Below, piece by piece: positions 7,090 through 19,707 of a DNA stretch of 64,000 nucleotides. The notes under the pieces were generated by a model. It worked only from the letters and a program-made list of their open reading frames with translations, was not told the origin of the DNA and ran no database searches. Position 1 is the first letter of the stretch; each line of letters opens with the position of its first letter. The stretch is from Phallus indusiatus (lineage: Eukaryota; Basidiomycota; Agaricomycetes; Phallales; Phallaceae). A program made the position numbers and the translations under genes. The stretch spans positions 558,001-622,000 of the forward strand of contig JAQFWX010000008.1 of the NCBI GenBank assembly GCA_027605045.1, in the 5' to 3' direction.

Positions 7090-7262
7090 TATTACAGGGG
7101 TTCTCAAAAACCTTGTCAGTGCGGAATTTTTTATTTTTTTTTCTTGCCTGGGCCGATAGGTGCCGAACCCAGGACTTGCTCGATGAAAGCTGAAAAAAAA
7201 GGGGGGCGGAATCAAAAAAAAAAAAAATCGCGCTGACAAGGTTTTTGAGAACCGCTGTAACA
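7090..7262. repeat. MITE-like element with about 35-bp terminal inverted repeats
   Basis: The two ends are inverted copies of each other. The left arm (7090 to about 7130) contains GGTTCTCAAAAACCTTGTCAG and the right arm (about 7223-7262) contains its reverse complement, with only a few mismatches over about 40 bp. The 100-bp core has no coding capacity, runs of A, G and T, and a small CCTGGG...CCCAGG inverted repeat. Size, non-coding core and TIRs fit a non-autonomous DNA transposon. The flanking duplication is unclear. It ends only 10 bp before the target-site duplication of the large element that follows. Confidence 0.65.
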
Positions 7263-7272
7263 TACAAAGCCC

Positions 7273-7281
7273 CTAATACTG
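7273..7281. repeat. Target-site duplication (left copy), CTAATACTG
   Basis: Nine bases immediately outside the left TIR. They are repeated exactly and in direct orientation at 19708-19716, immediately outside the right TIR. Confidence 0.85.
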
Positions 7282-7622
7282 TAGCCTCGGAACCAGTCTA
7301 TGTATTACGTCACCTCCCATTTTGGACATTCAAAACGGGAGGTTTCTCTATACATAGCCTGGTCCGGACCGCTTTGGCACCCCAGGCTGCCTCCCTGAAT
7401 TGCCCCCGCCGGGGTCCTTTCGATGACTAATGCATGAGATAATACATGTATGTACGCTAGCTCATAGAATAACAACAATTGTGGCCTTTTTTCTTACATT
7501 GCGAGGGAATAATATTCATTCAAAACATTTATTTCGTATGGAAACACGTATCTCATGTAAAAAATCGCAAAAAAACACGTCGCGGCATCATGATCGCACA
7601 GTGGCATGTTGCCTCTGCCGCC
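7282..7622 (+). repeat. Left 341-bp terminal inverted repeat
   Basis: It matches the reverse complement of 19367-19707 base for base by eye. Its outermost part is an imperfect palindrome (7292-7363: ACCAGTCTATGTA and ACCTCCCATTTT arms with their inverted partners, one mismatch per arm). The helicase ATG lies 23 bp inside its inner edge, so the helicase promoter is probably within this repeat. Confidence 0.9.
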
Positions 7623-7644
7623 TTCCTCTCACCACCACCTGTGA

Positions 7645-10047
7645 ATGGACCATACACCGACCCTCCAATCATTAACATCCCACGACACCCATACCACATC
7701 AAGTATAACTCAGCAGACCTCGAGTTCTGACTATGATGAGACTGAGGGTGGTTTACCGGACTGCGAACACGGGAGTGACGAGTTTTGGTTGATGCAGTTG
7801 AAAGCACACGCGTCTTCTCATTTGCCATTTGCACCAAAATCATGGCAGCTTGATACTGCTGTGAATTTGCTGAAGGGCAAGTCTGTCCTTTTGCTAGCAG
7901 GTACAGGAAGCGGAAAATCACTGACCTTTATTTTACCTGGAATGGTGACGCGCAAACCAACATTAATTCTATCACCTCTGAATGCACTACAAGAAGATCA
8001 GGTAAAGGAGGGTTTATAATAATGACATATTTGCTCACATTGGGTGGTAGGTCGCAGCTTTTGAACGCTTCAATGTTCGTGCCGTTGCAGTCAACGCCTC
8101 CAACTATTCCGCCCATTTACTAAAGGTTTTTTATTCTTATTCTTCGTGTGCTTGCGTTATTCTGTATTAAAATCCATTACAAAAGGAGATTCAAGAAAAG
8201 AAATATCAAGTGGTACTTACGTCGCCTGAATTTGTCCTGGAGAGTCAGAAGTGGCGCCCGCTTGTTGCTTCTCAAAAATTCACTCCGTTTTGGGGATTAC
8301 TCGTTGTTGATGAAGCCCACTGCGTTTTAAAATGGGGCCAGGGGAAGGGCAGTAATGCTGCTTTTAGGAAATCCTGGGGAAATATAAGCCAGCTTCATGC
8401 ACTGTTAAAGAGGGGAACTCCCATGCTTGCAGTGACAGCTACTCTGCCTACTGATGACTTACCGGCACTTCAGAAATCATTATCGCTCCCCGCTGATACT
8501 GTCATCATGAATTTGGGTAATAATCGACCCGAGATATTCATGGAATGTCGGCGGATGAAATATTCATTGAAATCAATGAAAGATTTATCCGAGTTAATTG
8601 TTTCGGCAGATGGAAATCTGATCAAAACCATGATTTTTTTTAATAATAGAAAATCAGCACATGACGCCCAGAGGAGAATCGCAGAAGACTTACCAACCTT
8701 TATAGATGAGGTTGCAGTGTATCATTCATTGCGAACGCTGGCCGCGAAACGCGACACTATGGAAAAGTTTGCCAATGGTGTATACAAAGTGTTATTGTGT
8801 ACTGAGGCAGCGGGAATGGTAAACTTACTTTACATTCGAGGTGCACATGAGTTTGACGACTTCTAGGGATGTAGCATTAAGGGCATCATTCAAGTCATTC
8901 AATGGCTCCTCACCGAATCTCTGGACGTCTGGCTCCAAAGGGCTGGAAGGGCGGCAAGGGGACCTGGTGAAAGCGGGAGAGCGATCTTGTTAGCGTCTGA
9001 AAATTGTATGAATAATGTTTATACGGCGCTGTCCCAGCACGGGTCAAGCTTACAAGCTATGGCGATGGAGAACTTGAAGATAATGAAGAAAACGCGACGG
9101 GGAAGAACTTGCAAAGACGTGACAGGACATTCAGTATATGAGATGCCGATGAATGAGTGGGTGGCGAGTCCTGATTGTCGCAGGATTATCCCCGATAGAA
9201 TATATGGGAACCCTGTGCGCGAGAGTATGTTTCTCAATAATTTATCAGCATGCTTCTTTTCTCACAGAGTTTTCGGGTAGGTGCGAGTCCTTCCCTTTGT
9301 TGTGACCGTTGTCGCGACAAACATCAAGTTTCTCCTTATCTTTCTGATCAACCCGATCCTCAGAGCCCTATGTTATCTGAGTCAGAATCATCAGTCGGAT
9401 CGTGTGCTCCCCCAGACGTCAACACAAAGCGCAAGAAAGGAGGCTGGAGGGTTCGTGAACACCGCGAAAAGGCTCAAACGGCCCTTCGCGAATGGCGGAG
9501 GAAAATTTGGCTGAGGGACTTTCGTGACTGCCTTGTAGGCTCTGAGATCATCATTGATGATGATATGTTGCATCGTGTGGCCAGACAGCAGCGATTTGCA
9601 GATCCCGCGATTTTGTCTGCAGAATGGGACATGTATGCCCAATATGGAGCGGAGGTTCTGGAGGTACTGAGAGCAGTGGATGACGAAGAGGGTCAAAGAA
9701 GGGAGAACGCGAAACGTGCAAAGGTGGCGAAGTATACCGCCACCAGACTGGGAAAAAAAAAGGCGGCAAGTGAACGCACCCTCGCTGATATATCAAACGC
9801 GTCCAATCTAAGCCCATATGCGCGCACATTCATACCCGGCACAGGATTCTTCGAATGTGAGGCGCAAAACCCCTCTGTCAATGCTCACTCTTTGATGGAT
9901 TCTCCCACTACGCGGGTACCTATCACACCATCTACACCGGCACCCTCTCAAGTCGGCTCAACGTCTGATTGCCCTACTCTCACCTGGCATTATGCCACAC
10001 CAGAGACGATGCGGGAGACAAAAGTCCAAAAACAGCGACGAAAATAG
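7645..10047 (+). CDS. RecQ-family DNA helicase of the DUF6589 element
   Basis: Five exons by inspection: 7645-8001, 8051-8125, 8186-8818, 8867-9224 and 9281-10047, with 48-60 nt introns. Superfamily 2 motifs appear in order: I (LLLAGTGSGKSLTF), Ia (LILSPLNALQEDQ), II (LLVVDEAHCVLKWG, the DEAH box plus the RecQ aromatic-loop position), III (AVTATLP), IV (IFFNNRKSAHDAQ), V (VLLCTEAAGMG) and VI (QRAGRAARG). The last exon continues into a CCDRC zinc-cluster remnant and a basic helical C-terminus typical of the short RecQ-like helicases amplified in basidiomycetes. No HRDC domain is seen. The gene appears intact. It would unwind DNA 3'-5'; a role in transposition of the host element is inferred from its position between the TIRs. 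The ATG at 7645 is the first in frame after the TIR; a start slightly downstream is possible. Confidence 0.85.
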
Positions 10048-10121
10048 TGATTCACAGGTATGTGATTGTGTTATAACTTGAACTACATTCTCATTTACCT
10101 TACAGATTCGCGCCTTTCATT

Positions 10122-12758
10122 TCAGTCAGAACCACTATCCCATTCATATCCCTCTCCGTTCTCCCCTGCATAACTGAATTCATCCCCATCATCTTGGTCA
10201 CCTTGATTTGGCACCTCCGCTTCCGTTCCCTCGTCCCAATTATATACTTTCCCCGTAGCTAAAGACTGTAAATCCTGTGCTGTTTTATGTTGATATCGAC
10301 TTCGTCCCTTAATCCAGTCAGCCAATGAGTGTGTGCGTAATTGGCGAATGCCCCGGTTTAAGACATTGGTATTTAAAGCATCAGATTCCATTCGTCCTAC
10401 AACGTCCCGTTGGTGGATTTTTTCTGAGTGATATAAGTTAATGAGCGTCTGAATGTCTTTGGTCTTGTCAACCTCGGAATGTTTTTTCCCTTTGTTCCCG
10501 CCTCCAAACATCTTATCAATGTGGTACCCTGTATGCGAAAAAAGAGGTATTAATGTGGACATCCTTCCCAGGTAATCCCACGATACATTGGGTCCATGAG
10601 GAGCACGCGCATTCTTTAAAGCACCAATATTATGCTCTTGTAGTTGGTCCGTAGGAAAGAAGCTAGCGGCACCTCCTTTTGTATTGACAAGCCAACAGTG
10701 TCGTTGAATAATGCTCCTGAAAAATAGATATAGTGAACACCAAACTCCCGCTACTTCATGACTCACATTTCCGCTGGTGTGAGATCATGTAGTTCCATTT
10801 GAAATTCCTCCAATAGCTCAATCACATAGTGTGGGTTATTGCCACCGGCAAACATAAACAGTAAATTTGGCATAACATTCCGCATGCGCCCAATATCTCC
10901 CTCTTTGATAGCTCGATGAAGCTCATAATAGATAAGAGTATCGCGCATAAACAAAGTAGCGTTTACAAAAGTTTTGTCAACACCAATGTTATTTTTGCTC
11001 GACCAATCCACCCCCTCATATATGTCCGGGAAAATATAAGTATCGTAGAGTTTCAAGGCCAAACTGATTATCGTCGATGGTGTCCATTCTTGGGCCATTT
11101 CAGCCAGAGTTTCCAAAGAGTCGGCACCTGCAATCTCCATCCAAGCATCCAGTATATGCGCCTCTAGCATATGGAGTAACAATTGGTGAGCCTGATAAAA
11201 GTCCAGTCTCTGTTTGCGGCTCTTTGGAGCTAGCCCAATTCTCTCCAGGATTTTTAGATCACGGGCAATGCCATTTCCTGCCAATGTACCGCGATGAATC
11301 CAGGATATCTGGTTTTGCAAAGTCATTTGGGTGTGGAACCAACCCTTGACTAAGATCATCCAGTCCAGGCGTGAAAAACCATCCAAGTCTTCTCCACGCA
11401 TTCCCTTTAAGTGTCGCATTAATCCCACAGATTTTTGATCGCCCATCCATATAATCATTCTCGAAATTGCCAGTTTCTTTTTGTGTTCGAGATTAGACAA
11501 CCCAATTTGACTGAGTAAATTTTCAATAACATTCGACGTTCCTTCTAAACTTGATTCGTCAACTGGGACCGTAACAATAGGCCACTGCACTGTTCGGTGT
11601 GCAGGCCCACTGGGCAGTTGCTCCTGAGCAGGAGGCTTGTTTAGGACCGTAGATTCCTGAACACGACTCTTCAGTTGTTGAAATAATGGATGATTCAACA
11701 GAAATTCTCGAATGTGAAACAACAGCATCTGTTTTAAAGGTGACGCCGCTTTTCGTTGAAGTTGGGCTATATCTGACCAACAAAGGGTAGATTTGTTCGA
11801 GCGGACACGCCAATTATCACGAATTGCACGCTGTATCGAGTTTTCTAAAATCCCGGAGTATTCTGAAGGCAAGGGCAAGATAGTCATTGCTGTACCATTA
11901 TCAAAATGATTATGGTGATTGACACGCTGTTCGGAAACACGGAACGCAATGTTGATATTATCGTGCATAGCGGCGAATGGTCTCTCGGCAACCCATTCTT
12001 GAACGCGAAGAATAGCCTCTAATGAATATTTTATTCTCATTGCAGTTGGAATGGTACAAGTACACCTCACATACCGCTGGAGAGATGATTTGTCGTGTCA
12101 TAAATCCATGTTGAGCTCATTCCCAGTCCCAAGGTGTGAAGAAGGTCTATGACTTTTGCCGGAGTTCCACATGACAACCAATAAATGGACAGTAATTGTT
12201 GAAAGGAGTTATTATACTTTGACCGGTGATATAGGAGCATACAGATGATCATAAAAATAATCTAGAGCAAGGTGTCAATAGTGGTCCTGAACTACAATTC
12301 ATTTGAATATACCTCTGTAGGGTCTTTTATCTTATTTCTTTCCTGACTCGATAAACGTTGAAGGAGATCAAAAAGCATAGGACTTTTAACTTGAAATCCA
12401 TTGACCAAATCAGAGACGGAGATGCTTAATAGCTCTTTCTCTGATAAAGGTCCCTCGGTTTTGATGTCTTTTTCTAAAAGAAAAAGCTCTTTATTCAATA
12501 TATTGTAGATCAAATCGGATGAAAAATCGATCAAGGATTGATGTGCGCCAGAGACATTATTGTCAGATCGCTTGGGCGGATTGAGCCAATTCTGCAAGAT
12601 GTTGGGCAAGAGTGCGCTTTTCAACAGTTGAGTTCTATGCGCTCTGATTGTAGGATCGCTAATACATTCCTTATCTCCATAACTTAGACTAAACAGAAAT
12701 TGAGGGAGGTCCAATCCCAAGGAATGCATGTGCCAAAGAATATTGCGAACTTTGTCTG
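10122..12758 (-). pseudogene. DUF6589 protein, main body (gene split by retrotransposon); candidate transposase
   Basis: Spliced exons 10122-10716, 10767-12018, 12075-12261 and 12313-12753, plus the 13-codon start exon at 19246-19284, give an 837-residue protein with all phases consistent. Conserved family blocks are visible: HDNINIAF, FDNGTA, MGDQKSV followed by RLDWMILVKGWFH, HCWLVNTKG and QEHNIGALK. DUF6589 proteins are multicopy in Agaricomycetes and have no assigned function. The acidic residues Asp242 (11960-11962), Asp416 (11438-11440) and Glu667 (10635-10637) sit in the three strongest motifs and could be an RNase H-fold D-D-E triad; this is inference. The C-terminus is acidic. The gene is interrupted after codon 13 by a 6.5-kb retroelement, so this copy should be non-functional unless an internal ATG is used (for example 12729, which keeps most of the protein). 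Confidence 0.8.
12754..12758. repeat. Retrotransposon target-site duplication, GTCTG (left copy)
   Basis: Five bases directly before the left LTR; the same five follow the right LTR at 19246-19250. They encode part of codons 12-13 of the DUF6589 gene on the minus strand. Confidence 0.9.
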
Positions 12759-13157
12759 TGTCAGGGTACGCTACCGCGTCCCCTTACTTTCCTTATTTAT
12801 TATCATCGGTATATGTTTATTTCTATTTCATTTACATTTCCCGTCCATTACTTCCATTTTCCGTTTCCTCGTTCTGCCTCTATTTCACTTTCTTTACTCG
12901 CGCGCGTCGCACGCTCGTACTCGGCGTGATGCCCGTGACATCACGTCGCTTAGGTTCGGTTCGGGCGCCTAGCACTTAGCTGTGTCAGGGCCGCACGCCG
13001 CGCTATCGTTTTTCATGTATATAGTCGCTGTCCCTAGAGTGAGGGTCCCTAAGCTTGTTCTCTTAGGATCCCCTCCCTCTAGGTGAGTAGTTAGTGTTTT
13101 CCGCAATATATTATCTTAGGATCCCCTCCCTCTAGCCTGAGCTGAGTAGCCCTAACA
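12759..13157 (+). repeat. 5' LTR (399 bp)
   Basis: It starts TGTC and ends AACA, and looks identical to 18847-19245. It carries a TATATAG promoter element at 13018-13024 and a likely transcript start near 13051. A direct duplication of about 21 bp (CTTAGGATCCCCTCCCTCTAG, at about 13062 and 13113) lies downstream. Confidence 0.95.
13018..13061 (+). promoter_or_regulatory. LTR promoter: TATA box and putative transcript start with self-priming 11-mer
   Basis: TATATAG (13018-13024) lies about 30 bp upstream of AAGCTTGTTCT (13051-13061). This 11-mer is the exact reverse complement of the primer-binding site at 13160-13170. In Tf1 the first 11 nt of the mRNA fold back onto the PBS and are cleaved to prime minus-strand synthesis; the spacing here fits that arrangement. 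Confidence 0.65.
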
Positions 13158-13159
13158 GT

Positions 13160-13170
13160 AGAACAAGCTT
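13160..13170 (+). other. Primer-binding site, self-complementary (AGAACAAGCTT)
   Basis: It lies two bases after the 5' LTR. It pairs perfectly over 11 nt with the presumed 5' end of the element's own RNA (13051-13061). I did not try to match it to a tRNA 3' end. Confidence 0.65.
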
Positions 13171-13321
13171 CCACTCGCAGACTGGCCGTTTTTATCGACA
13201 CTCGCTATCGAAAAATCGCGCTCGACACCGACTATCGCAGTGTCGTATTTTTCCCTCGAGTCCCGTCTATAACCGACCCCTCTGCTCCATCTTAAAAACC
13301 CCATTTTCCTTTCTCTCTCTC

Positions 13322-14590
13322 ATGGACTCTTCTCCTCCACCCTCTGCACCCCCACTCGTCACCCTCAACGATGTGGCGACTATTATTATGCGGCAGTTCG
13401 CGGAAATGGATGCCCGCCTGGCAAGACAGGAATCCCAGGCCTCACAGATGATTGAGGTGCTGCAGAGCATCCGAGACGCGGCTAGAGCTGCTCCAACCCA
13501 AAACTCCCCTGTGGGCGACGCGTCCTCGTCTGGACAACCACCGGCTCCTGAGCATCAAGCCAGTTCACGCTCTTCCCGAAATACCCGACCTGCTGTACCT
13601 CCTTCGTTCGACGGAGATCGCTCCAAGGGTCGCGCCTTTTGGAACACTGTCGAGTTTTACATGAGTATATGCAGTCGCGATTTCGAGACTGATGAACTCA
13701 AGATCGGCTGGGCGATGTCGTACATGAACGAAGGTCGCGCCCTTACCTTCAGCGAATCTATGCTGAAAAGGTATCAAAGAGGAGAGAAGCCCTTCGCTGA
13801 CTGGGATGCCTTCCGGGAAAGATTCAAGGCCGATTTCTTTCCACAATCCGAGCAAGAAGACGCCATCAACACCCTCTACTCCAACCGCTATGTCCAAGGC
13901 AACAGGACTGTAGAGGAATATGTAGACGCCTTCCGCGTACTCATTGAGCACGCTGGCTTTACGGAAGGTCTCGCCATTAACACGTACTTTCGTAATGGTT
14001 TAGACCCGGCAATTGCATCTCTGGTAGCGACGATGAAGGACCGACCCGCACTCCACGACTACGAAGGCTGGATCAGGCAAGCACGCATGTTTGACATGGA
14101 CAGGCGTGCCAACGAGGCCTTCACCGCTGCTCGCCGTCGACTCGTGGGCTCTGGAACGGCTCAGACAAATCCCGCAGCTGTCCCCATTAATCGACCTCGC
14201 CCCAACCCTTTTCCGTCGTATCAGACCCTCCAGATCCAGAGGAGGCCCCCTGCCCCTTCCTATCAGGCTCCTCCCTATCCACCTCCCAGGCCAGCATCTC
14301 AAATCGTGCCCACGTTGCCTCCAAGACCTGCGGCTCCTGCTCCTGCACCACAGGTTAGGCATGATCCGATGGACGTTGACGCTGCCCGTCGACGTGCTGG
14401 CCCAGAATCAACCAGGTGTCGTCGCTGTGGAGCAGCAGGCCATTGGGCTCGCGAATGCCCTCGTGCGTATGACATCCGATATCTTCAACCCGAGGAATTA
14501 GACGACAGTATCGCGCATCTGCTGGCCCAGAAAGATGCGCTAGAAGCCCAGACACGTGGTGACTCTGCTCTGACAGAGGGGAGACTGTAG
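13322..14590 (+). CDS. Retrotransposon Gag (capsid/nucleocapsid)
   Basis: 422 codons, continuous. It starts at the first ATG after the 5' leader. The N-terminus is helical, followed by the Ty3-type retrotransposon Gag domain (about residues 90-270; AFWNTVEFYM ... WDAFRERFKADFFPQ ... NRTVEEYVDAFRVLIEHAGF), a Pro-rich linker, and one CCHC zinc knuckle (CRRCGAAGHWARECP, about 14418-14462) that would bind the element's RNA. A frame change near a G-run at about 14575 appears to replace the natural acidic C-terminus, so the last residues are probably not authentic. The protein forms the virus-like particle. Confidence 0.88.
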   Translation: MDSSPPPSAPPLVTLNDVATIIMRQFAEMDARLARQESQASQMIEVLQSIRDAARAAPTQNSPVGDASSSGQPPAPEHQASSRSSRNTRPAVPPSFDGDRSKGRAFWNTVEFYMSICSRDFETDELKIGWAMSYMNEGRALTFSESMLKRYQRGEKPFADWDAFRERFKADFFPQSEQEDAINTLYSNRYVQGNRTVEEYVDAFRVLIEHAGFTEGLAINTYFRNGLDPAIASLVATMKDRPALHDYEGWIRQARMFDMDRRANEAFTAARRRLVGSGTAQTNPAAVPINRPRPNPFPSYQTLQIQRRPPAPSYQAPPYPPPRPASQIVPTLPPRPAAPAPAPQVRHDPMDVDAARRRAGPESTRCRRCGAAGHWARECPRAYDIRYLQPEELDDSIAHLLAQKDALEAQTRGDSALTEGRL

Positions 14591-14788
14591 CTGCAGCAGA
14601 GGTAGAGGATTTTCAAAACGGCGACGAGTGAACGATGCACCCTCGTTGCCGACATCTAATAGATTCGACATTTTGTACATAGATCGCGAACAAAATGACA
14701 CTTCTGATTCGAATCTAACTACCCCTGCTGCATCCCCTGCTAAACCCGAAGAATCGTCTCCACCTGCTACACGCTCTGTTTCAACTCC

Positions 14789-15260
14789 ATGTATGCTGTC
14801 GCCTTCTCAACGTCGCGCGTTGCCAGCGAATACCGACTCGCAGCTACTGCTGGTACGCAGAAGCTAGAGATCCCGGTGGAACTACAGAGTGTTGACACTG
14901 GAGCCCTGCTGCACAGCAAGGCCATGCTGGACACTGGAGCTAGCGGTATGTTCCTCGATCGCGACTTTGTCGAGAAACATCGGCTTCCCTCCGTGCGTCT
15001 TGCTAAACCAATTCCCGTGTTCAACGTTGATGGTACGCCCAACCACGCTGGCTCTATCACCCACGTCGTTGACCTGGTTGTTCGATTTCGGGATCATTCC
15101 GAACGCACCTTGTTCGCCGTTACCTCGCTCAAGTATCCCGTCCTATTTGGGCTGCCGTGGTTCAAGGCTCACAATCCCGTCATAGACTACACAACTGGTC
15201 AAGTGGAGTTCATGCGCTGCAGCCCCAGTTGTCGGTCTTGTGCTCCACGCTGGCCAGCGG
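14789..15260 (+). pseudogene. Retrotransposon Pol, aspartic protease segment
   Basis: It contains the retropepsin-like active site MLDTGASGMFLD (about 14926-14961) and the downstream FGLPWFKAHNPVIDY block typical of fungal Ty3 proteases. The protease would mature Gag and Pol. An upstream stretch in another frame (14628-14760, NDAPSLPTSNRF) reads like the start of Pol, so a frame break lies between about 14760 and 14850. The segment ends at 15260, where a GTAAGC splice-donor-like sequence begins; without splicing the frame would stop at 15443-15445. Confidence 0.75.
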
Positions 15261-15580
15261 GTAAGCTCTCTAAGCGCGCGTTCCAACAGATCCGACGCGC
15301 ACCTTTACCTGTAACGTTTCGTTACAGTTTACGATTAGCCCGGTTCTTACGGACTCACAACAAACAGTGTAAAGCTGTATATTTGCAAGTGCAGGTAAGA
15401 AAGGCTGCCGGCGCCTTTACCGTTACGCGGTATTTACTGGTGTGACGGCGCCTATGTACGTTACATAATACTAGGTACTTGTGCAGACGACGATCGTCTG
15501 CATACAATTGTATGTATATACGAATATGTACTATGGTTAATAGTAGTCCGCTGCTCATAGCGGAACCGTTACATTACCAG
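15261..15580 (+). other. 320-nt intron-like insert inside pol
   Basis: The segment begins GTAAGC and ends ACCAG. Removing it joins the protease frame to the reverse-transcriptase frame exactly (phase 1). It is about six times longer than the host introns in this window and is full of perfect short hairpins: CTGTAACG/CGTTACAG (15309-15327), GCAGACGA/TCGTCTGC (15483-15501) and TCCGCT/AGCGGA (about 15547-15564). It also has repeated GTTAC/GTAAC words and short GGTAA...TTACC ends. It could be an authentic intron or a MITE/introner-like insertion acting as one. Confidence 0.6.
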
Positions 15581-17213
15581 AGCTCGACAACACTGAGGCC
15601 GATGATCCTGATATACCAGACCTGGTTGATGTCGAGTCTGAGATTGAAGAGGGTGATCGACTGTTCGCGATATCAATGCTACCCGACGAGCCCGACACTC
15701 ACCGCATATATGCCACCGAGACTATCTCCCAGCGACTGGCTCAGGCCCACGCCAACAACGCAGACGCACCAGCTCCCAAGGGTTTTCGGGACATCGTGCC
15801 AGAGATGTTCCACGACTTTGCCGACATTTTCTCGAAGGAGTCATTCGATTCGTTGCCGCAGTCGAAGAAGTGGGATCACCCGATAGAACTTGTGCCAGGT
15901 TCCGAGCCCAAGTCTTGCAAGATCTACCCGCTGTCACCTAACGAACAGGCCGAGTTAGATGCGTTTCTGGAAGAGAACCTTGCGTCTGGACGAATCCGGC
16001 CCTCCAAGTCGCCCATGGCGTCCCCGGTGTTCTTCATTAAGAAGAAAGATGGCTCTCTTCGCCTTATTCAGGACTATCGCGCGTTGAATGCCATGACAAT
16101 CAAGAATCGCTACCCGCTGCCTCTGATCTCGGAACTCATCAACAAACTGCAAGGTGCCCGGTACTTTACCAAGCTGGACGTGCGCTGGGGTTACAACAAC
16201 GTACGGATAAAGGAAGGAGATGAGTGGAAGGCCGCTTTCCGCACCAATCGTGGCCTCTTCGAGCCCTTGGTGATGTTTTTGGTCTCACTAACAGTCCTGC
16301 CACCTTCCAGACAATGATGAATGAGATCTTTGAAGACATGATCTCGGAAGGTGTCGTTGCCGTCTATATCGACGACATTCTCATTTACACTCGGGATCGG
16401 GAACAGCACGACAGGGTGACACGACGCGTTCTCGAACGTCTCCGTGAACACAAACTGTATCTCAAGGCAGAGAAGTGCGAGTTCTGCCGGACTAAGATCG
16501 AGTACTTGGGTGTTGTCATTTCCGAGAACACCGTCGAGATGGATCCCGCGAAAGTCTCGGGTGTCAGAGACTGGCCTGTCCCGAAGAACGTCACGGAGGT
16601 CCAGTCCTTCCTGGGCTTCGCCAACTTCTACCGTCGGTTTATCAAGGATTTCGCGCGTATTGCCAATCCCATGTTCGGGTTAACCAAGAAGGATACGTCC
16701 TTCGTCTGGTCCGACACTTGTCAGCACGCTTTCGATACTCTGAAGTCGTCAATCACCTCTGCTCCTATTCTCCTCATCCCCAACCCCGCTAATCCTTACC
16801 GGGTTGAAGCAGACAGCTCCGACTTTGCAACAGGCGCAGTTCTTTCACAGTTGTCGAGCGAAGACGGTAAATGGCACCCAGTTGCTTTCTTCTCGAAGGC
16901 CCTCAGTCCCGTTGAACGCAACTACGAGATTCACGACAAGGAGATGCTCGCTATCATACGGTCCTTAGAGGAATGGCGACACTTTCTTGAAGGCGCGTCT
17001 CACCCTATCGACATACGGACTGATCACAAGAATCTCGAGTATTTCATGTCCGCGCGTAACCTCAATCGTCGTCAAGCCAGATGGTCAGTATATCTCTCAC
17101 GATTCGACTTTACTCTGCAGCATATACCGGGTAAGTCGATGGGTAAACCTGATGGCTTGTCCCGTCGCCCAGATCATGGCTCGGGAAAGGACGACAATCG
17201 GGCGTCACCTTAA
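15581..17213 (+). pseudogene. Retrotransposon Pol, reverse transcriptase and RNase H segment (frame-broken)
   Basis: RT blocks are clear: SPMASPVFFIKKKDGSLR, QDYRALN, RYPLPLI, TKLDVRWGYNNVRI, then YIDDILIYT (YxDD box, about 16366-16392) and YLGVVIS. RNase H follows with EADSSDFATGAVLSQ, YEIHDKEMLAI and IDIRTDHKNLEYF. The frame shifts once at a T5 run (16276-16280), between the two conserved RT blocks. It shifts again at a G3 run (17200-17202) near the end of RNase H. Each break is explained by one missing base. As written the gene cannot make an uninterrupted enzyme. Confidence 0.85.
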
Positions 17214-17224
17214 TCCGACCCGAA

Positions 17225-18835
17225 ATGTTTGCAATCAATGCTCTGCAAACATTCCGTCTTAAGGGGGAGGAGGAGGATCTTCTACGCCAGATTCGCAAGG
17301 CCAATCGGGAAGGCAAGGTTGAGGATAGTGTGTCCAAAGCCGTTGCAACACTTCGTGCACTGGGTGGTCGTTCGGCTCACTCGTCGGAATGGTTTGAAGA
17401 CCAGGACCTCCTCTACTATCGCGGCAAGGTTTATGTGCCAAATGTGGACGAATTGCGTCGGAAAATCCTTTCCAGACACCACGACACCAAACTCGGTGGT
17501 CACCCGGGTCGTTTCAAGACTCTTGAGCTCGTTTCGCACCTTTTGGTGGCCAGGTGTCTCTAGGTATGTACAACGCTATGTAGAGGCCTGCGACATGTGT
17601 CTACGTACGAAACCGTCTCGTCATGCCCCTATGGACTTCTCCGACCCACAGAAGTGCCAAGTCGACCCTGGGAACACATCTCAGTCGACTTCATCGTGGA
17701 GCTGCCAGAATCCAACGGTTTCGACGCGATCCTCTCTGTCGTCGACTCTCTCACCAAACGGGTTCATTTCGTGCCGACATTTACGACACTTGACGCGACA
17801 GGTCTGGCCCGACTGTACCTCCAGCACGTCTGGAAGCTCCATGGGCTTCCCATGAAGGTGATCTCTGACAGGGGCCCCCAGTTCGCGTCCCGCTTCACGC
17901 AGGAGCTTTCTAGGCTCCTTGGCATACGGCTTGCACCCTCTACTGCATATCATCCTCAAACCGATGGTCAGACAGAACGCGTCAATGCAGAAGTCGAGCA
18001 GTATCTTCGGCTCTTCACCTCAGAGCGACAGGACGACTGGGACCAGCTGCTGCCCATGGCTGAGTTCGCATACAACAACCATGTGCACTCAGCCACGCGT
18101 TCGACACCTTTTGAGCTCGACACTGGACGACATCCTCGTATGGGATTCGAACCGCAGGTTGCCGACTCGAAGATCGAATCTGTCAACGAGTTCAAGACGC
18201 GTATGGAATCGACGATAGAGGAAGCCAAGGCCGCTATAGCCAGGTCGAAAGACGAGATGGCCAAGTATTACGATCGGAAACACATCCCAGCACCTGAATA
18301 CAAGGTTGGCGACAAGGTATACCTCGATTCGAGCGACATCCGCACCACCAGACCTTCCGCCAAATTGTCGCATCGGTACCTAGGCCCATTTCCGATAGTC
18401 AACAAGGTCGGATCCCATGCATACAGGCTACGTCTACCACTGTCGATGTCAAGACTCCACCCCGTCTTCCATGTCGGGAAGTTACGTCCAAAGGTCGAAG
18501 ATACGATCCCGGGTCGTCGTGTTAAGGCTCCACCACCTCCTGAGGTCAGAGACGACGGTGAACACTACGTCGTGGAACGGATTCTGGACAGTCGTGTCTT
18601 CCGGAGACGACTCGAGTATAAGGTGCGTTGGGAAGGCTATGGTCCCGAGCACGATCAGTGGGAACCCGAGTCGAATATTGCAGCCCCAGATCTCATTAAG
18701 GAATTCCACCGCGAACATCCGAGTGCGCCACGCTCGATAAATGGCCTTCTTTTCCATCGTCGCCCTCGGTTTGATTTTTCTAAGTTACAAGCGTCATTAG
18801 TCGAAGCTACAGGCGTCGGGACGCCGCCTCGTTGA
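17225..18835 (+). pseudogene. Retrotransposon integrase with C-terminal chromodomain (frame-broken 5' part)
   Basis: The N-terminal H2C2 zinc-binding region spans 17440-17615 (RHHDTKLGGHPG ... CDMCLR) and is interrupted by frame breaks at about 17537 and at the C4 run 17626-17629. From 17660 the frame is open to 18835. The integrase core has Asp in SVDFIVELPE, Asp in VISDRGPQF and Glu in QTERVNAEVEQ (DD35E). The C-terminus has a GPF/Y-type module (HRYLGPFPIVNKVG) and a chromodomain (about 18560-18720, YVVERILDSR ... YKVRWEGYGPEHDQWEPE). In chromoviruses the chromodomain steers integration, often to heterochromatin. Here it landed in another transposon. Confidence 0.88.
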
Positions 18836-18846
18836 AGGGGGGATGG
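18834..18846 (+). other. Polypurine tract
   Basis: A purine-rich run, GAAGGGGGGATGG, directly before the 3' LTR. This is the expected primer site for plus-strand DNA synthesis. Confidence 0.75.
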
Positions 18847-19245
18847 TGTCAGGGTACGCTACCGCGTCCCCTTACTTTCCTTATTTATTATCATCGGTAT
18901 ATGTTTATTTCTATTTCATTTACATTTCCCGTCCATTACTTCCATTTTCCGTTTCCTCGTTCTGCCTCTATTTCACTTTCTTTACTCGCGCGCGTCGCAC
19001 GCTCGTACTCGGCGTGATGCCCGTGACATCACGTCGCTTAGGTTCGGTTCGGGCGCCTAGCACTTAGCTGTGTCAGGGCCGCACGCCGCGCTATCGTTTT
19101 TCATGTATATAGTCGCTGTCCCTAGAGTGAGGGTCCCTAAGCTTGTTCTCTTAGGATCCCCTCCCTCTAGGTGAGTAGTTAGTGTTTTCCGCAATATATT
19201 ATCTTAGGATCCCCTCCCTCTAGCCTGAGCTGAGTAGCCCTAACA
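18847..19245 (+). repeat. 3' LTR (399 bp)
   Basis: Looks identical to the 5' LTR. It is followed by the GTCTG duplication (19246-19250). Confidence 0.95.
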
Positions 19246-19284
19246 GTCTGCAATACTAAGTTGAACGAGAGGAGTTTGAGACAT
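19246..19284 (-). pseudogene. DUF6589 gene, 5' fragment (codons 1-13)
   Basis: The ATG at 19282-19284 opens a 13-codon stretch (MSQTPLVQLSIAD). Across the retrotransposon this joins in frame to the reading frame entering at 12753. The TSD bases CAGAC are part of codons 12-13. The start codon lies 82 bp inside the right TIR, so its promoter is probably TIR-borne. Confidence 0.8.
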
Positions 19285-19366
19285 CAGGATGTTGATAACT
19301 TGAATACTAATAGTTTCCACTCGAATTATTGATCATATCCATCGATAAGATCACTGACCGGGGAGA

Positions 19367-19707
19367 GGCGGCAGAGGCAACATGCCACTGTGCGATCATG
19401 ATGCCGCGACGTGTTTTTTTGCGATTTTTTACATGAGATACGTGTTTCCATACGAAATAAATGTTTTGAATGAATATTATTCCCTCGCAATGTAAGAAAA
19501 AAGGCCACAATTGTTGTTATTCTATGAGCTAGCGTACATACATGTATTATCTCATGCATTAGTCATCGAAAGGACCCCGGCGGGGGCAATTCAGGGAGGC
19601 AGCCTGGGGTGCCAAAGCGGTCCGGACCAGGCTATGTATAGAGAAACCTCCCGTTTTGAATGTCCAAAATGGGAGGTGACGTAATACATAGACTGGTTCC
19701 GAGGCTA
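19367..19707 (-). repeat. Right 341-bp terminal inverted repeat
   Basis: Reverse complement of 7282-7622 over its whole length; no mismatch seen by eye. It contains the same terminal palindrome (19626-19697). Confidence 0.9.

What the first reader, a model, noticed from the sequence alone, without database searches (positions are those of the whole stretch)
7282..19707. Precisely bounded DNA transposon built from a RecQ helicase and a DUF6589 gene, 341-bp TIRs, 9-bp TSD
The sequence shows two 341-bp inverted repeats, identical by eye, flanked by the direct repeat CTAATACTG. Only two genes lie between them. DUF6589 proteins and short RecQ helicases are both multicopy in mushroom-forming fungi, and DUF6589 has no assigned function that I know of. 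This copy ties the two into one mobile unit with exact ends and makes DUF6589 the best transposase candidate. I do not recognise the element as a named superfamily.
Basis: partly seen in the sequence, partly recalled or inferred. Interest (0 to 1): 0.88.

Follow-up and report, generated by a model that had tools for sequence, protein, structure and literature searches.

The report
AcademH-like jumping gene in a fungus
This is a real mobile DNA element of a mushroom-type fungus, with exact ends, a helicase gene and a gene of a family called 'unknown function' that has the predicted shape of a DNA-moving enzyme; it fits a known kind of element (AcademH), and its value is in giving that protein family a likely job.

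Summary
The element is real: 342-bp TIRs (not 341), 100% identical, flanked by CTAATACTG. The other haplotype (contig C93) has an empty site with one CTAATACTG. A second copy with both genes (5,893 bp, C121) has the same ends, a 9-bp TSD and the same convergent RecQ/DUF6589 pair. Sixteen of 19 paired-end copies have exact 9-bp TSDs. DUF6589 is predicted to fold like an RNase H-type DDE transposase with a helical insertion, nearest Hermes and P element; the acidic triad is conserved and kept in the window. Mobility and the transposase role are supported. 'Not a named superfamily' probably is not: 9-bp TSD plus helicase in fungi is what is published for AcademH. No Academ transposase sequence was available, so membership is probable, not proven. 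Apparently new: the DUF6589 assignment and a palindrome at each end whose pairing is kept across diverged ends.

The parts
7282..19707 (.). whole DNA transposon, 12,426 bp including a nested Gypsy; about 5.9 kb without it
   Evidence: empty allele
7273..7281 (+). left target site duplication CTAATACTG
   Evidence: single copy in the empty allele C93
19708..19716 (+). right target site duplication CTAATACTG
7282..7623 (+). left TIR, 342 bp, begins TAGCCTCGGAACCAG
19366..19707 (-). right TIR, 342 bp, 100% identical to the left
7287..7367 (+). terminal palindrome of the left TIR (about 80 nt hairpin when single-stranded)
   Evidence: DNA fold z -5.26; pairing kept across diverged ends (selected ends)
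19622..19702 (-). terminal palindrome of the right TIR
   Evidence: identical TIR
7645..10046 (+). RecQ-family helicase gene with C-terminal extension; ORF pieces 7645-8019, 8171-8866, 8867-9280, 9241-10047; introns inferred, splicing not verified
   Evidence: TIGR00614 E 1e-9 and 7.6e-15 for the first two pieces; the third only weak (best 0.0014); WRN/RecQ PDB hits; C-terminal piece 36% identical to the C121 copy
10122..12757 (-). DUF6589 gene, body (pieces 10122-10784, 10763-12097, 12292-12757, introns inferred); predicted DDE transposase
   Evidence: PF20231 on the first two pieces; the third aligns 42% to the C121 gene; fold of 10763-12097
19246..19284 (-). first dozen or so codons of the DUF6589 gene, cut off from the body by the Gypsy (inferred by eye)
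   Evidence: sequence; the C121 protein aligns up to the insertion edge
11960..11962 (-). codon of first catalytic Asp (D293 of P0005)
11438..11440 (-). codon of second catalytic Asp (D462 of P0005, GDQ motif)
10635..10637 (-). codon of catalytic Glu (E707 of P0005, QEHNI motif)
12759..19245 (+). nested Ty3/Gypsy LTR retrotransposon with chromodomain; pol split over several frames; described only
12754..12758 (+). Gypsy target duplication GTCTG, left (right copy 19246-19250)

Best explanation
It is a DNA transposon of AcademH type. The DUF6589 protein is its DDE transposase. It recognises the TAGCCTCGGAACCAG ends with their terminal palindrome, frees the element, and joins it to target DNA with a 9-bp stagger. 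The convergent RecQ-family helicase is its accessory enzyme, most likely unwinding the palindromic ends or the strand-transfer or repair intermediate. Short elements with the same ends (84-713 bp, too short for either gene) are moved in trans. Shown by sequence: ends, TSDs, empty alleles, paired genes, conserved triad, predicted RNase H-like fold, constraint on the transposase. Inferred: that the protein cuts and joins, that movement is cut-and-paste rather than copying, the helicase's role, and Academ ancestry. This copy is now disabled in cis by a recent Gypsy insertion near the start of the transposase gene.
Confidence: 0.8

Rival explanations
1. A separate, unnamed superfamily of RNase H-fold transposons that took up a RecQ helicase independently of Academ.
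For: No sequence link to Academ could be tested. No held paper contains the word DUF6589. The fold sits nearest hAT and P element. A RecQ helicase is also carried by another superfamily, Kolobok (PMC9587614 passage).
Against: TSD length, helicase and host range all coincide with AcademH.
Confidence: 0.17
2. KolobokH, the fungal Kolobok lineage with a RecQ helicase.
For: RecQ helicase, fungi only (PMC9587614 passage).
Against: Kolobok targets TTAA with 4-bp duplications (recalled); here 16 of 19 paired copies have 9-bp duplications of varied sequence. In KolobokH the helicase is described as downstream of the transposase domain; here the genes are convergent.
Confidence: 0.02
3. DUF6589 is a passenger and the RecQ protein or a trans-acting transposase moves the unit.
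For: The helicase is the other conserved gene; many copies lack both genes and must move in trans.
Against: DUF6589 has the predicted DDE fold and conserved triad, shows dN well below dS, and no other ORF of 100 aa or more lies outside the two genes between the TIRs of the C121 copy.
Confidence: 0.03
4. Cellular gene pair or segmental duplication that only happens to have inverted repeats.
For: Low copy number of the long form.
Against: Empty alleles with single target copies, and about 15 independent 9-bp TSDs.
Confidence: 0.01

Closest known systems
AcademH lineage of Academ DNA transposons (Kojima 2020, Mob DNA 11:15; paper itself not held, known here through passages of PMC10045372 and PMC10799480)
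   Same: 9-bp TSD, encoded helicase, found in Basidiomycota and Ascomycota, DDE-type transposase
   Different: transposase homology untested; whether AcademH genes are separate and convergent, and whether it has a palindrome at each end, could not be checked
KolobokH (RecQ-encoding Kolobok of fungi; PMC9587614 passage)
   Same: RecQ helicase plus DDE transposase in fungi
   Different: TSD length and target (9 bp varied versus TTAA, recalled); gene order
hAT (Hermes) and P element
   Same: predicted RNase H fold with helical insertion between Asp2 and Glu; nearest solved structures
   Different: TSD is 9 bp (hAT 8 bp, recalled); no hAT or THAP Pfam match; extra helicase gene
Helitron
   Same: carries a helicase
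   Different: no TIRs or TSDs in Helitrons (recalled); no Rep or PIF1 domain among the hits here

Membership tests
AcademH | TSD of 9 or 10 bp (PMC10045372 passage) | tested here: met
   9 bp in the window element and in 16 of 19 paired copies
AcademH | encodes a helicase | tested here: met
   RecQ-family helicase in the window and in the C121 copy
AcademH | DDD/E transposase | tested here: met
   predicted fold and conserved triad; no activity shown
AcademH | transposase groups with Academ transposases in sequence | not testable with these tools
   no Academ reference sequence or profile held
AcademH | occurs in Basidiomycota, Ascomycota, Mucoromycota (PMC10799480 passage) | tested here: inconclusive
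KolobokH | TTAA 4-bp TSD (recalled) | tested here: not met
   9-bp TSDs of varied sequence
hAT | 8-bp TSD (recalled) | tested here: not met
   9-bp TSDs
hAT | hAT C-terminal dimerisation domain in Pfam | tested here: not met
   only DUF6589 matches, at E up to 1 for the window pieces and up to 0.001 for the C121 copy and P0012
Helitron | Rep (HUH) plus PIF1 helicase, no TIR or TSD (recalled) | tested here: not met
   TIRs and TSDs present; no such Pfam domains among the seven pieces scanned

The most novel reading that the evidence does not exclude
DUF6589 elements are their own superfamily, or a deep branch, of RNase H-fold transposons in which a dedicated RecQ helicase works together with an element end that is itself a long palindrome: the helicase opens or resolves the terminal hairpin during excision, joining or repair, so that transposase, helicase and end hairpin have evolved as one set.
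Probability: 0.17. Interest if true: 0.7.

Novelty: new member of a known kind. Interest (0 to 1): 0.45.

Why it matters
It gives PF20231 (DUF6589), a family with many copies in mushroom genomes and also present in ascomycetes (179 and 133 homologues in the two larger searches), a concrete and testable function: a DDE transposase with named catalytic residues. Such 'hypothetical proteins' in fungal genomes could then be annotated as transposons. The second copy with both genes, the empty alleles and the family of short elements give clean substrates for testing what a RecQ helicase does in DNA transposition.

Tried and rejected

Palindrome test: one search listed 22 distinct ends; for I picked 13 ends (11 distinct 92-nt sequences, 10 distinct arm pairs) that showed the palindrome and its right-hand anchor by eye, and left out 11 distinct ends (both ends of L044 and L057, one end each of L045, L046, L049, L051, L054, L056, L058) that are truncated, diverged or without it. 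So the 78% is for selected ends. It does not correct for relatedness, and templated repair of a palindrome could give the same pattern as selection. The C121 copy pairs in only 6 of 10 positions. In one search (RNA parameters, mononucleotide shuffles) six TAGCC-type ends gave z -3.2 to -7.2, the decayed C45 end only -1.6.

TSD census: pairs that used a weak inner match (in the window and in L045) or a second right end (L046) were set aside as alternatives to an outer or inner exact pair. The 34 loci held 19 paired, 13 single-ended, one with only a weak end (C134) and one without ends (C45). For single-ended loci I fetched mostly about 1 kb; none has a listed partner of opposite strand within 14 kb. 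Four of the 52 motif sites (on C36, C129, C184, C186) were not fetched. In one search one query piece (duf_w1) was translated out of frame by my slip; its rows are not used.

Full report
WHAT IS THERE. The two inverted repeats are real and exact: 342 bp at 7282-7623 and 19366-19707, 100% identical, each beginning TAGCCTCGGAACCAG, flanked by CTAATACTG. The window is contig C184 of an unnamed 67-Mb genome in 206 contigs, in which several loci have near-identical counterparts on other contigs, as expected if both haplotypes are assembled.

EMPTY SITE. Contig C93 carries the same locus (98.3-99.4% identical over about 17.5 kb) without the element and with exactly one CTAATACTG. Three further insertions were tested with joined flanks: the C121 copy with both genes (single GGACATGCC), the C138 short element (single TATTTTTTT) and the C2 short element (single copy with one base changed). 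Each has a continuous empty allele, so 4 of 4 tested.

A MISSED THIRD UNIT. A Ty3/Gypsy element at 12759-19245 has identical 399-bp LTRs and a GTCTG target duplication (read). Separate frames match gag, reverse transcriptase, RNase H, integrase and chromodomain, and weakly a protease below its cut-off. It lies inside the DUF6589 gene, separating about the first dozen codons (19246-19284, inferred) from the body (12757-10122). The transposon proper is therefore about 5.9 kb, and this copy cannot now make a normal transposase. Identical LTRs suggest the Gypsy came in recently.

THE TWO GENES. The plus-strand gene is a RecQ-family helicase. The best NCBIfam model is TIGR00614 for the first two pieces (1e-9 and 7.6e-15, below the whole-protein cut-off, as pieces would be); the third piece has only weak helicase hits. 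WRN and bacterial RecQ are the PDB matches of the second piece. The minus-strand gene is DUF6589 (PF20231; E 1.3e-74 for 10763-12097, 8.2e-19 for 10122-10784, none for 12292-12783). They are convergent. Introns are inferred from frame changes and were not verified.

COPIES. The end motif occurs 52 times at up to one mismatch, against 2 for the reversed control. I examined 34 loci taken (48 of the 52 motif sites are covered): 19 have paired ends. Of these, 16 have an exact 9-bp duplication, 2 an imperfect one (8/9, 7/9) and 1 none (3/9). C143 and C195 share one target in opposite orientation and are probably alleles, so about 15 are independent. The paired copies are the window element, the 5,893-bp C121 copy, two of 2.8 and 3.9 kb without a match to either gene, ten of 634-713 bp (one of them the copy without a TSD) and five of 84-98 bp. 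The five smallest are little more than one palindrome with two ends. Thirteen loci have one end only.

DUF6589 LOCI. One search gives eight matches at six loci: C184 (window), C121, C45, C134, C111 and C141. One search looked for the helicase near them. C184, C121 and C45 have helicase core pieces convergent to DUF6589. C134 has only the helicase gene's C-terminal extension, also convergent (59% identical to that of C121). C111 and C141, probably alleles, keep a left TIR and a truncated DUF6589 and have no helicase match in the 10 kb fetched. Paired TIRs with a TSD are kept only at C184 and C121; C45 has weak inverted arms and no convincing TSD; C134 is decayed. Against the C111 copy, 291 codons give 76% amino-acid identity, dN 0.15 and dS 1.66, which points to constraint on the protein, though dS is near saturation.

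PALINDROMIC ENDS. Each TIR of the window element begins with a palindrome that folds into an 80-nt hairpin as single strand (z -5.26, 0 of 200 shuffles as good). Related ends with changed sequence keep the pairing: over 10 outer positions, 10 distinct arm pairs give 78% Watson-Crick pairs within an end and 49% when arms of different ends are combined, 0 of 10,000 permutations as good. These ends were picked by eye as having the palindrome (11 of the 22 distinct ends; the others are truncated, diverged or lack it). Relatedness was not corrected for, and copying across a palindrome could also keep the pairing. It fits a dimeric binding site or a real hairpin; the RecQ partner makes the second attractive, but this is a hypothesis.

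MECHANISM. Shown: insertion with 9-bp stagger, defined ends, paired genes, predicted transposase fold and conserved triad, gene-less copies that must be moved in trans. Inferred: DUF6589 does the cutting and joining; movement by cut-and-paste; helicase acts on ends or intermediates.

RELATION TO KNOWN KINDS. AcademH generates 9- or 10-bp TSDs and encodes a helicase (PMC10045372, passage) and was reported in Basidiomycota, Ascomycota and Mucoromycota (PMC10799480, passage). Academ-like short elements were noted in Marasmius oreades, an agaric (PMC8290104, passages). KolobokH carries RecQ in fungi (PMC9587614, passage) but its TTAA target (recalled) does not fit. I therefore file the element as probable AcademH; the transposase comparison that would prove it could not be made. 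DUF6589 occurs in no held paper, so linking that Pfam family to this transposase may be new in print, but the library searched is incomplete.

Noticed in passing
window 7092-7262: A roughly 170-bp MITE-like element with 85% complementary arms lies just left of the transposon, with an apparent TA target duplication; it is absent from the C93 allele and has 95-99% identical copies on C40, C185, C198 and C78.
   Followed up: partly
L029 1120-1214, L032 1229-1326, L047 241-336, L048 239-323, L050 819-902: 84-98 bp elements made of one palindrome with TAGCC-type ends at both sides; three with exact 9-bp duplications (two of them probably alleles), two with imperfect ones. They look like single-end fold-back derivatives.
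   Followed up: partly
L041 (C45:278000-284300): A much diverged DUF6589 and RecQ pair (about 22-27% identity), also convergent, with weak inverted arms: a second old lineage in the same genome.
   Followed up: partly
P0245 (Metarhizium anisopliae): One predicted protein carries both DUF6589 and PF02171 (Piwi, name recalled); it may be a gene-model fusion or a real host-transposon fusion.
   Followed up: no
DUF6589 protein family: Four of 159 aligned proteins have Asn in place of the first catalytic Asp, possibly dead or domesticated copies.
   Followed up: no
L045 (C159:165189-169095) and L044 (C45:727711-730522): Elements of 3.9 and 2.8 kb with exact 9-bp duplications but no DUF6589 or RecQ match; they contain other repeats, probably nested insertions.
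   Followed up: no
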